Source: Aphelocoma coerulescens
Lineage: Eukaryota > Chordata > Aves > Passeriformes > Corvidae
Length of the DNA: 64,000 nt
Reading direction: 5' to 3'
Assembly (NCBI RefSeq): GCF_041296385.1
Contig: NW_027184085.1
Span: 53,473,109 to 53,537,108 of the forward strand
Made by a program: the position numbers and the translations under genes. Below are positions 51,634-53,957 of this stretch, piece after piece. The notes beneath the pieces are model-generated. The model saw nothing but the letters and a program-made list of their open reading frames with translations. It had not been told where the DNA came from and ran no database searches. How positions within the stretch are numbered: position 1 is the first letter of the stretch; each line of letters opens with the position of its first letter.

Positions 51634-51639
51634 AGGTTT
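51634..51639. repeat. Left target-site duplication, AGGTTT
   Basis: Six bases directly before the 5' LTR. They match exactly the six bases directly after the 3' LTR (53952-53957). A 6-bp duplication is typical of class II (beta/alpha-like, ERVK) retroviral integration. Confidence 0.9.
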
Positions 51640-51931
51640 TGTTGGGGCCCTCCCCCTGCCACGTGGTCCTGGGAGAGGGGCCCTCAGGGGGAGGACATGG
51701 GGTTTCCCTAGCCCCTGGTAAGCCTCGTTCCCCATTGGTTGTTTTGTGTTCCCCTGCGCAGGCAAGGACCCTCAGGTCTCATGATTGCCTCAGTTCCTCA
51801 GCAGATCTTCAGCCATGCGGCTGGAGAAATAAACATCTCTCTAAAACATCTATCAAGAATCGGTCCATATCTATTTCTTTCCACGGGCCTCGTTGTCTGA
51901 TACATCATGTTGCAGTTTCCCCGCTGTAACA
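51640..51931 (+). repeat. 5' LTR of the cold-shock element
   Basis: It starts TGTTGGGG and ends GCTGTAACA, with TG...CA termini. It contains a palindromic E-box CACGTG (51660-51665), an inverted CCAAT box (ATTGG, about 51734) and a poly-A signal AATAAA (51828-51833). By hand alignment it differs from the 3' LTR at roughly 13-14% of positions, including several small indels. The match is strongest around the inverted CCAAT box, the poly-A signal and the last 60 bases. Confidence 0.9.
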
Positions 51932-51960
51932 AATGGTGGATAATGCAAACAGAATGATCC
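51932..51960 (+). other. Candidate primer-binding site, not assignable
   Basis: Two bases after the 5' LTR stands TGGTGGATAATGC. A TGG at this place is expected for a tRNA primer-binding site, but the bases that follow do not match a tRNA 3' end I know. It may be decayed or use an unusual primer. Confidence 0.35.
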
Positions 51961-52040
51961 CCGATCCCTACAGCAACTGATTTGTGAGTAAACTCTGGAT
52001 TTCTCTTCTTGGTTTTGTTTTACTGTTCCATCTCTAAACT

Positions 52041-52410
52041 ATGGAGGAACTGTGGAAAGACTCTTGGCTCTCAGAGCCGCATGTGGACATTCATCTTAAA
52101 CTTGAAAAGATTCTTGAACAACGATTTGTAAATTTTAGCTTAATTCAAGCTCAAAAGGAACTGAAACGTTTCCTTGCATGGTTGTTTAAGAACTTTTTCT
52201 ACGTTTCTTGGGATTTAATTCTTTAAAGACTTTTGGAAGACCGTTTGGACATAGTTAATTTTTGAGTCAAAATATATGCCAATAGAAGAATATTTTCATG
52301 AATATTATTTAATTACTGAGACTGTTGAGCAATGTCAGCTGTGTCGTGGCGAAGGGAAGCGTGCCTCAGAGGCCATGCGACCCAGACCACATGGACTGAG
52401 CGCTCTGTGA
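52041..52410 (+). pseudogene. gag: Gag N-terminal (matrix-like) remnant, broken
   Basis: An ATG in a strong context (A at -3, G at +4) lies 110 bases after the LTR, where gag is expected. It opens 61 codons ending in VSWDLIL. The peptide is helical and basic (EKILEQRF, AQKELKRFLAWLFKNF), as in retroviral matrix domains. At 52224-52226 there is a stop. The adjacent frame then stays open from about 52222 to 52407 except for one TAG at 52252-52254, and its text still looks protein-like up to about 52350. This suggests one frameshift plus one nonsense change in an originally longer matrix segment. No capsid or nucleocapsid follows. The identification rests on position and character. I could not run a profile search. 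Confidence 0.5.
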
Positions 52411-52783
52411 GCAGTAGTGAGGCAATTCCCGCGCACAGGCGGAGTGACGTGAGCTGCAGTGTCGGCAGCAGAACGAGGAGCAGCGGGAGTGGCACGACAC
52501 GGCGGTGGCTGCCCATCCCCGTGCAGTGCATGGTGGACGAGCCCTGTGAACACCTGACCGAGAGGGGCAGCGTGTGGGTGGCAGCCGGCAGCGGTGGCGG
52601 CAGAGCAGAGCTGCACCTAGCCGAGATGCGCACTGGAGCAGGGAGTGGTGGGGTTGTCGCTCGGGGGCCCAGCCGAGACATGGGTGCAGCCCCAGGCAGC
52701 AGCAGTGCAGCTGAGAGCAGAGGAGATGGCGCGCAGGGAGCTGAACGGCACAGCCCGGCCCAGCCCAGCCCGCGTGGCCCCGA
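52411..52783 (+). other. GC-rich segment between gag remnant and cold-shock frame
   Basis: This part is markedly GC-rich, in contrast to the AT-rich gag remnant and the AT-rich cold-shock coding part. It probably comes from the 5' end of the captured mRNA: the N-terminal region and leader of Y-box genes are GC-rich and encode Ala/Pro/Gly. A frame of 205 codons (52332-52949) covers it but does not join the cold-shock frame (different phase). The minus-strand frames of 93-192 codons here are shadows of composition. Confidence 0.5.
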
Positions 52784-53392
52784 ATGCAACCCTGGGAAGA
52801 GCAGACAGGCACGAGCAGCCCCAATGGTCCCAGCAGCACTGACAACCCTGGCAGCTCCAATGCGGGGGCGAGCGAAAACAAAAGTGAAACCAAGAACGCA
52901 GCAAGACAGAAAACAGCAGCCACTTGGAAAAAGGAAAAAATCACTGTAGCTAAGGTTTTAGGAAGAGTAAAATTGTATCATGTTAAACAAAATTATGGTT
53001 TTATAACAAGATGTGACAACCAAGAAGACATATTCATTCACAGAACTGCCATTAAAAGGAATAACCCTAAAAATTACCTGCAAAGTGTAGGAGATGGGGA
53101 AGTTGTACAATTTGATATAGTGCAAGGAAAAAAGGGTTTACAAGCAGCGAATGTTACTGGGCCTGGAGGTATTCCCATCAAAGGCAGCCGTTATGCACAA
53201 AATTGGAAACAATATCCATCCCAGCAATTTCCCTACCCACAGCCTACTTTCCCCTTTTACCCTATACCCAATATGAACCCTTTCCTAAGTTTACGCCATC
53301 CCCAATTTATCCCTAATCCATTTTTCACCCCATGGCTTCCCTATACAATTCCCTTTCCCTACAATGCCTCTCCAATGCCGAGTGGGGGATGA
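52784..53392 (+). CDS. Y-box-type cold-shock-domain protein captured in an LTR element
   Basis: Predicted 202 residues. Residues 1-50 are polar and low in complexity (S, N, T, K). Residues about 53-120 form a cold-shock domain of the vertebrate Y-box type, a five-stranded beta barrel binding single-stranded RNA/DNA. RNP1 is Q-N-Y-G-F-I (69-74) and RNP2 is I-F-I-H (83-86). It keeps family blocks such as RTAIKRNNPKNYLQSVGDGE and AANVTGPGG (111-119). Compared with the RNA contacts of human YB-1 (W65, F74, F85, H87), three are kept (F73, F84, H86) and the tryptophan is replaced by L64. After GSRYA (124-128) the tail is Pro/Phe/Tyr/Asn-rich to the end, without the alternating arginine-rich and acidic islands of Y-box proteins, so half the usual protein is missing or replaced. 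The start is uncertain: the ATG at 52784 has a weak context and the same frame is open back to 52745. Transcription would come from the 5' LTR. The frame is intact even though LTRs and gag have decayed. Confidence 0.8.
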   Translation: MQPWEEQTGTSSPNGPSSTDNPGSSNAGASENKSETKNAARQKTAATWKKEKITVAKVLGRVKLYHVKQNYGFITRCDNQEDIFIHRTAIKRNNPKNYLQSVGDGEVVQFDIVQGKKGLQAANVTGPGGIPIKGSRYAQNWKQYPSQQFPYPQPTFPFYPIPNMNPFLSLRHPQFIPNPFFTPWLPYTIPFPYNASPMPSGG

Positions 53393-53663
53393 AAAGGGGA
53401 GGGAAGAAATTAACTATTGTTGTTTAGAGTTCCAACAGGTACAAATGGAAGAAACCCTCTCCTGCCTCAGTTTCCCCACAAAGCATGCCCAGAGAGTCCT
53501 GTCTCCCTTCTTTCAGCCTTAAGATATTCCAGAGAATCTGTTTGAACGTTTAAAGACTCAGGAGGGTGGCTTGTTTTGTTTTGAAACTGTTCTTGTTATG
53601 TTTATCCATTTGTTTTCAACGTTAAGTTTTAAATCTCTTTTTGTTAAAAATAAACGGGTGAAA
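53393..53663 (+). other. 3' untranslated region of the element, up to the 3' LTR
   Basis: A purine tract (GGGGGATGAAAAGGGGAGGG, from 53384) overlaps the stop codon of the cold-shock frame. The bases just before the 3' LTR (AAATAAACGGGTGAAA) form only a poor polypurine tract. Nothing env-like can be read between them. Confidence 0.45.
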
Positions 53664-53951
53664 TGTTGGGGTTCCTGCCCCCTACCGTGTGGTCCTGGAG
53701 AGGGGCCCTGGGGGGGAGGCACGGGGTTTCCCTGCCCCTGGTCAGCCTCGTTCCCCATTGGTTGTTTTGTGTTCCCCTGTGTGGGCAAGGACCCTCAGGT
53801 CCCGGGACTGAGCAGTTCCTCGGCAATGCCCCAGCCATGCGGCTGGGAAAATAAACATCTCTGAAACATCTATCAATAATCCGTCCATATATATTTCTTT
53901 CCATGGCCCTCATTGTCTGATACATTGTGTTGCAGTTTCCCTGCTGTAACA
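53664..53951 (+). repeat. 3' LTR of the cold-shock element
   Basis: It starts TGTTGGGG and ends GCTGTAACA, like the 5' LTR and in the same direction. The poly-A signal AATAAA is at 53850-53855 and the inverted CCAAT box is kept. The CACGTG E-box of the 5' copy is changed here (CGTGTG). The frames of 63-128 codons crossing it on both strands are not genes. Confidence 0.9.
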
Positions 53952-53957
53952 AGGTTT
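53952..53957. repeat. Right target-site duplication, AGGTTT
   Basis: Identical to the six bases before the 5' LTR, which proves that both element ends are the original integration ends. Confidence 0.9.

What the first reader, a model, noticed from the sequence alone, without database searches (positions are those of the whole stretch)
51634..53957. An LTR element that has captured a Y-box cold-shock-domain gene
Two direct LTRs with a perfect 6-bp target-site duplication enclose a truncated gag-like start and a cold-shock-domain reading frame, with no pol or env. Retroviral capture of cellular genes is well known for avian oncogenes. I know of no described endogenous element carrying a Y-box/cold-shock protein. 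Such a protein binds RNA and could affect packaging, translation or stability of the element's own RNA, which would give the capture a purpose. The structure is read from the sequence; the role is inference.
Basis: partly seen in the sequence, partly recalled or inferred. Interest (0 to 1): 0.92.

Follow-up and report, generated by a model that had tools for sequence, protein, structure and literature searches.

The report
Bird jumping gene with borrowed RNA-binder
In the Florida scrub-jay and a crow, a numerous retrovirus-derived jumping element encodes a Gag matrix-like domain fused to an RNA-binding-type domain that was likely taken once from a host Y-box gene and would help package the element's own RNA, and the insertion that others linked to hooded-crow plumage is very likely one of its copies.

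Summary
Window 51634-53957 is one copy of a 2.2-2.3 kb LTR element with a perfect 6-bp target duplication. It belongs to a mobile family: 37 of 40 copies examined have two LTRs, and 25 of those 37 have perfect, all-different 6-bp duplications. Of 150 places scored by protein search, 102 lie in open frames of at least 440 codons. Intact frames join a Gag matrix-like domain (homologous to that of an ERVK in the same genome), a linker, a Y-box cold-shock domain and a Pro/Phe tail. The cold-shock domains form one clade, lack the YBX1 introns, mostly keep the RNA-stacking residues and show purifying selection. The genome matches the Florida scrub-jay; a Corvus has a 440-aa relative. Both element-side primers published for the 2.25-kb insertion upstream of hooded-crow NDP match this family exactly, one of them inside the fusion ORF. 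The window copy is old and broken (frameshifted matrix, W65L). Best mechanism, inferred: a Gag-like adaptor whose RNA-binding half is a Y-box domain and which packages its own RNA into a helper's particles. No helper was identified.

The parts
51634..51639 (.). target-site duplication, left copy (AGGTTT)
51640..51931 (+). 5' LTR (TGTTGGGG...TGTAACA)
51934..51950 (+). presumed primer-binding site, starts TGGTGGA; not the TGGCGCC type of the arrayed ERVK
   Evidence: sequence; assignment to a tRNA untested
52041..52379 (+). Gag matrix-like region, broken here: open 61 aa from ATG 52041, then continues in another frame (ORF 52276-52410)
   Evidence: homology to the ERVK domain; fold
52380..52951 (+). 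GC-rich Ala/Arg/Gly linker, frame broken in this copy; in frame in L044, L083, L084
52784..53392 (+). remaining open frame, 202 aa, holding the end of the linker, the cold-shock domain and the tail
52952..53209 (+). Y-box cold-shock domain, 86 codons; W65L and N67H in this copy
53210..53389 (+). Pro/Phe-rich tail; in B-type copies it contains the crow primer site
53649..53663 (+). polypurine-tract-like stretch before the 3' LTR (clearer in L083: ACGGGGGAGA)
53664..53951 (+). 3' LTR
53952..53957 (.). target-site duplication, right copy (AGGTTT)

Best explanation
This is an old, broken copy of a corvid LTR retrotransposon family that lacks pol and env and whose intact copies encode one fusion protein, a Gag matrix-like domain joined to a Y-box cold-shock domain that was apparently captured once, likely from a spliced host mRNA, and that protein is predicted to act as a Gag-like adaptor that helps package the element's own RNA. 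Shown: the LTRs, 6-bp duplications and copy family; the ~440-450 aa fusion frame in young copies; homology of the matrix-like part to an ERVK Gag; CSD homology, clustering in one clade and constraint. Inferred: enzymes come in trans from a resident ERVK-like element; the CSD stands in for the missing nucleocapsid by coating the element RNA in the germ line; the matrix part would bring that RNP to the helper's assembly site.
For: Family: 37 of 40 copies with two LTRs, 25 of 37 with perfect, all-different 6-bp duplications. Young copies L083 and L084: LTRs 99.7% and 98.6% identical, duplications TATATA and CTCATC (read by eye from the printed ends), intact frames of 449 and 442 aa. Matrix-like part: BLASTP 4e-10 and hhalign 95% to the domain in front of Gag_p24 in an ERVK of the same genome. 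CSD: one clade 99/100 with stem 0.36; 33 of 40 copies keep all four residues W65, F74, F85 and H87 (no motif filter), which stack on RNA in YB-1 (PMC7226217 passages). Constraint: L083 v L084 dN/dS about 0.10 in the CSD, against 0.57 in the matrix, 0.75 in the linker and 0.27 in the tail; shared v private changes in 40 copies, Fisher p 0.0023; 16 synonymous to 10 nonsynonymous changes among 13 young CSDs, p 0.0002. Host YBX1 splits this domain by introns; the element does not. Precedent: MMTV Gag assembles with its RNA and YB-1, and YB-1 knock-down lowers particle output (PMC4486188 passages).
Against: No helper was identified: no convincing match to the element's LTR, leader or 3' part in 30 integrase loci of 3.3 kb, and the one ERVK piece read has a different primer-binding site and no LTR match. 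No expression, binding or packaging data. The name matrix rests on position in front of Gag_p24 (in L085 in another frame) and a weak fold match; Pfam names no matrix family for either partner. The matrix start lacks the Gly2 seen in the ERVK protein. The 13-copy test drew from a list ranked by protein score, which favours conserved proteins. In subfamily A alone the shared-v-private test gives p 0.09, and its tail and N part are not significant; the CSD-v-rest contrast for L083/L084 gives p 0.05.
Confidence: 0.5

Rival explanations
1. Same element, but the protein works mainly on its RNA in the cytoplasm: like germ-cell Y-box proteins it masks and stabilises the element RNA, and packaging into particles needs only cis signals.
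For: The CSD is an RNA-binding domain of the Y-box proteins, which pack mRNA, and loss of MSY2 (YB-2) destabilises mRNA in mouse oocytes (PMC7226217 passages). No Gly2 on the matrix domain.
Against: The matrix-like domain is found in all three lineages A, B and C, which a simple masking protein would not need. The charged C-terminal domain of Y-box proteins is missing.
Confidence: 0.25
2. The CSD is a passive passenger: a captured piece carried along by an element that moves only through its LTRs and leader.
For: Non-autonomous LTR elements can spread without coding (recalled). The window copy is broken, and none of the 40 older copies has an open stretch as long as 440 codons over the CSD (longest 419); the matrix frame is open for 100 codons or more in only 10 of 40.
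Against: Frame kept over a B-v-C divergence of dS about 1.3 with dN/dS about 0.17 (uninterrupted copies only); shared changes depleted in nonsynonymous ones; 102 of the 150 best-scoring places with open frames of at least 440 codons (ranked by protein score).
Confidence: 0.12
3. The fusion protein is a dominant interferer that hijacks or blocks the helper's Gag, as a parasite or as host-kept restriction.
For: It shares the matrix-like domain with a resident ERVK, and Pfam finds no capsid in it.
Against: Many mobile copies with intact frames speak for a mobile parasite and not for one retained host gene. Nothing tested shows interference.
Confidence: 0.08
4. Processed Y-box pseudogene that landed in an older LTR element.
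For: Intronless CSD.
Against: CSD at the same place in the 40 copies (chosen by that region), 25 with different perfect target duplications, and fused in frame to the matrix-like domain in several lineages.
Confidence: 0.01

Closest known systems
corCorLTRK1b, crow ERVK subfamily; the 2.25-kb insertion upstream of NDP (Weissensteiner et al. 2020, PMC7341801; passages and section 24 read)
   Same: Full length 2.25 kb v 2.20-2.33 kb here; LTR 296 bp v about 296 in L083. Both element-side primers match exactly: P_R_F_1 in 8 of 40 copies, P_L_R_2 in 12 of 40, 11 of those 12 in subfamily B; L036 and L040 hold both.
   Different: The words open reading frame and non-autonomous do not occur in its main text. 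It places the primers in the LTR regions; here they match just behind the 5' LTR and in the ORF tail. The NDP insertion itself was not available to read. The young C-type copy L083 does not match the primers (7 mismatches each).
Gag-oncogene fusions of acute avian retroviruses (gag-crk, gag-erbB; recalled)
   Same: Intronless host segment joined in frame behind the start of Gag in a defective element.
   Different: Here endogenous, in many copies, kept over long evolution, and the cargo is an RNA-binding domain.
Mouse mammary tumour virus and host YB-1 (PMC4486188 passages read; the original report Bann et al. 2014 is not held and known only from its citation)
   Same: Gag, viral RNA and a Y-box protein in one assembly.
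   Different: There the Y-box protein is the host's and separate; here it is encoded in the element and fused to a matrix-like domain.
Y-box-binding proteins YBX1, YBX2, YBX3
   Same: Cold-shock domain 56-60 of 86 residues identical in young copies; RNA-stacking residues kept in 33 of 40 copies.
   Different: No charged C-terminal domain; matrix-like domain in front.
Non-autonomous LTR elements in general (TRIM, LARD, MusD/ETn type; recalled)
   Same: LTRs and cis signals without pol.
   Different: Carries a constrained captured gene.

Membership tests
ERVK-type (class II) LTR retrotransposon | Two LTRs with TG..CA ends | tested here: met
ERVK-type (class II) LTR retrotransposon | 6-bp target-site duplication | tested here: met
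   25 of 37 perfect; L083 and L084
ERVK-type (class II) LTR retrotransposon | Lys-type primer-binding site (TGGCGCC, recalled) as in the resident ERVK piece | tested here: not met
   element TGGTGGA..., ERVK piece TGGCGCCCG
ERVK-type (class II) LTR retrotransposon | Related pol | not testable with these tools
   the element has no pol, so it cannot be placed by pol
ERVK-type (class II) LTR retrotransposon | Gag N-terminal domain of class II type | tested here: met
   (partner lies in front of Gag_p24, zinc knuckle and protease, in another frame); Pfam itself names no matrix family
Retroviral matrix fold | Helical bundle like a solved matrix | tested here: inconclusive
corCorLTRK1b (crow NDP insertion) | Primer sites inside the insertion | tested here: met
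   20 shuffles of each primer reach 4-7 mismatches at best in 10 loci
corCorLTRK1b (crow NDP insertion) | Whole-sequence match to the subfamily | not testable with these tools
   no crow genome DNA or repeat library held
Y-box protein family | Y-box type cold-shock domain | tested here: met
Y-box protein family | C-terminal domain of alternating charged clusters | tested here: not met
   Pro/Phe tail instead; feature from PMC7226217 passages
Gag-onc type capture | Intronless host segment fused in frame to Gag | tested here: met
Gag-onc type capture | Moved by a helper | not tested
   helper not identified

The most novel reading that the evidence does not exclude
A retroelement has rebuilt Gag: it kept matrix, dropped capsid and nucleocapsid, and put a captured Y-box domain in as its RNA-binding half, so it carries in its own genome the kind of host cofactor that a betaretrovirus recruits. 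This self-packaging adaptor let it flood corvid genomes and, by one insertion at NDP, contribute to the plumage difference between hooded and carrion crows.
Probability: 0.4. Interest if true: 0.93.

Novelty: new variant of a known kind. Interest (0 to 1): 0.82.

Why it matters
It is a case of a vertebrate LTR element that appears to have domesticated a host RNA-binding domain and kept it under selection while multiplying. It turns a general question, how a non-autonomous element gets its RNA packaged, into one testable with a single protein. It also gives a reading frame to the family that very likely includes an insertion linked to plumage and mating isolation in crows.

Tried and rejected
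Processed pseudogene inside an element: rejected. LIN28 donor: rejected, LIN28 chains score at most 33.5 bits against 129 for Y-box. Donor paralogue: not resolved. Of six copies compared over 86 residues, L083 and L084 are identical to YBX2, YBX1 and a YBX3-like domain at 60, 58 and 56; the window copy leans to YBX2 (55-56 v 53 and 53), L017 is level (56-57), L040 and L033 lean to the YBX3-like one (57 and 54). In one search nearly all listed hits that carry a Y-box name are YBX2 (120 of 207 proteins listed; one metagenome entry is named Y-box-binding protein 1), but that search collects by exact words. A search of the genome for a YBX2 C-terminus found nothing and had no control. Helper: PF00665 search (150 of 7792 candidates scored), 30 loci of 3.3 kb scanned for the element's LTR, leader and 3' part: no convincing match; one arrayed ERVK piece (L085): no match. 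Fold search of the matrix model gave no strong hit. The region search with the matrix part of P0010 found only P0010 and P0011. A count of the crow primer site genome-wide and an unbiased sample of young copies chosen by a non-coding stretch did not run, machine busy. tRNA scan of the window: none.

My first residue count (19 of 23 copies) used copies picked by a motif that contains F74, and my first young-copy test (12 copies, 14 to 8) had dropped L091, whose frame is open but has F74Y; both were redone without these filters and the redone figures are the ones reported. The dN/dS groups still use the motif-picked, uninterrupted copies (10 A, 11 B, 2 C).

Novelty in print: ten paper searches (listings with abstract starts) in the open PMC library listed no paper whose title or shown abstract describes a cold-shock domain in an LTR element; subscription papers and repeat databases were not searched.
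Full report
What is there. Window 51640-53951 is a 2312-bp element with two LTRs (292 and 288 bp) and a perfect duplication AGGTTT on both sides. Between the LTRs lie a presumed primer-binding site, a broken Gag matrix-like region, a GC-rich linker, a 202-aa frame with a cold-shock domain (Pfam E 8.8e-19) and a purine-rich stretch before the 3' LTR. Pfam found no pol or env domain in the three frames scanned.

It is a mobile family. A DNA search of the window's own genome scored 40 places out of 1530 first-look candidates. 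I fetched the 39 others. Of these 40 copies, 37 have two recognisable LTRs. Of the 37, 25 have a perfect 6-bp duplication, all 25 different; the other 12 gave none or a shorter one. LTR K2P is 0.024-0.146, median 0.089; the window copy is 0.123. The 40 were chosen by likeness to the window's CSD region, so they cannot show how many elements with this LTR lack it.

Young copies carry an intact fusion frame. A protein search with a Y-box stretch scored 150 places of 1561 candidates; 102 of the 150 lie in open frames of 440 codons or more (recounted). Two were read: L083 has LTRs 99.7% identical over 296 bp, duplication TATATA and a 449-aa frame; L084 has LTRs 98.6% identical over 277 bp, duplication CTCATC and a 442-aa frame (duplications read by eye from the printed ends). 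With the crow paper's formula (LTR differences over 2 x 0.0158 per site per million years) L083 would be about 0.1 and the window copy about 4 million years old; a slower rate would make both older in proportion.

The cold-shock domain. The best solved relatives are Y-box CSDs; LIN28 is far lower (33.5 bits at most). Host YBX1 in this genome splits the domain over at least three exons; the element does not, so the source was likely a spliced RNA. In a tree of 75 rows (86 columns, few for so many rows) the 30 element CSDs lie on one side of a branch with support 99/100 and length 0.36, and six residues are changed in both B and C lineages against all five host references: most simply one capture. 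Which paralogue was the donor is open. The four residues that stack on RNA in YB-1 (W65, F74, F85, H87; passages of PMC7226217) are all kept in 33 of 40 copies; the window copy has lost W65. One young copy, L091, has F74Y.

Three lineages and recombination. Lineage A (with the window) matches lineage B in the first 39 CSD codons (dS 0.10) and lineage C in the last 45 (dS 0.14), while A v C in the first part (1.2) and A v B in the last part (saturated) are far apart: A is a B/C recombinant, as expected if RNAs were co-packaged. The matrix-like domains of A/B and C are only about 31% identical.

Constraint. L083 v L084: CSD dN 0.009, dS 0.091; matrix 0.105 and 0.183; linker 0.095 and 0.126; tail 0.097 and 0.358. 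The CSD-v-rest contrast gives p 0.05. B v C: dN 0.22, dS 1.29 (uninterrupted copies only). In the 40 copies found by DNA, changes private to one copy are 69 of 88 nonsynonymous (about the neutral 0.75), shared changes 40 of 72 (p 0.0023); B alone p 0.0019, A alone p 0.09, A tail p 0.62, A N part p 0.28; repeated mutation at CpG sites was not modelled. Among 13 young C-type CSDs, 16 changes are synonymous and 10 not (neutral expectation 74% nonsynonymous, p 0.0002). For that test 15 places were fetched; three had no open frame (L086, L088, L099), L100 is B-type, and L083 and L084 were added. The 15 came from a list ranked by protein score, which biases towards conservation.

Species and relatives. 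Assembly size and scaffold statistics nearly match the published Florida scrub-jay assembly (1,330,612,911 bases in 660 contigs here, 1,330,898,477 in 659 scaffolds there; contigs of 68.04 and 168.97 Mb are its N50 and longest; PMC11631490 passages), and the contig of the Aphelocoma coerulescens protein P0010 has exactly the length of contig C36 here (4,676,095). Protein search with L044's open frame gave 16 hits: ten from Corvus moneduloides (best 440 aa, 76% identity, full cover, 24 member sequences), one from Aphelocoma, and five other CSD proteins, three of them named Y-box.

The crow link. PMC7341801 (passages and section 24) describes a full-length 2.25-kb ERVK insertion (corCorLTRK1b, LTR 296 bp) 20 kb upstream of NDP, associated with reduced NDP expression and plumage. 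Its two element-side genotyping primers match this family: P_R_F_1 exactly in 8 of 40 copies and with at most 2 mismatches in 31 of 40, just behind the 5' LTR; P_L_R_2 exactly in 12 of 40 (11 of the 15 B copies and L025) and with one mismatch in 3 more, over codons reading HPWFPSQ in the ORF tail; L036 and L040 hold both exactly. Shuffled primers reach 4-7 mismatches at best in ten loci (20 shuffles each). Against it: most A-type copies lack the P_L_R_2 site (6 mismatches or more), and the young L083 matches neither primer (7 mismatches each), while L084 has 3 and 1. Sizes agree. I infer that the NDP insertion is a B-type copy; its own sequence was not read.

How it likely works. Mobilisation must come from elsewhere, since there is no pol. 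MMTV, a betaretrovirus, assembles with its RNA and host YB-1, and YB-1 knock-down lowers particle output (PMC4486188 passages; the primary paper was not held). A protein that joins a Gag matrix to a Y-box domain would bind the element RNA through the CSD and bring it to the helper's assembly site through matrix. This step is inference; the helper is unidentified and the element's primer-binding site differs from that of the ERVK piece read.

Novelty. Captured genes in retroelements are known (recalled). An endogenous, multiplied vertebrate LTR family with a constrained matrix-Y-box fusion did not turn up in ten searches of the open library (calls listed under Tried and rejected).

Noticed in passing
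G000 C37:3198980-3426305, C38:2974306-3080100, C331, C349, C522: Long head-to-tail arrays of an ERVK-like unit, mostly with about 6.86 kb spacing, with open integrase frames; one piece (L085) has a matrix-like domain, Gag_p24, zinc knuckle and protease.
   Followed up: partly
G000 C34: Contig of 20.98 Mb, about the size given for the largest W scaffold of the scrub-jay, holds many integrase and CSD-element hits.
   Followed up: no
L085:442-2308: The matrix-like and Gag_p24 frames overlap in different frames in this array unit.
   Followed up: no
L086, L088, L099: A further, decayed CSD lineage with features of both B and C.
   Followed up: no
L083 and other copies, first bases after the 5' LTR: Primer-binding site TGGTGGA..., perhaps for a tRNA other than Lys (resemblance to tRNA-Ala is recalled, untested).
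   Followed up: no
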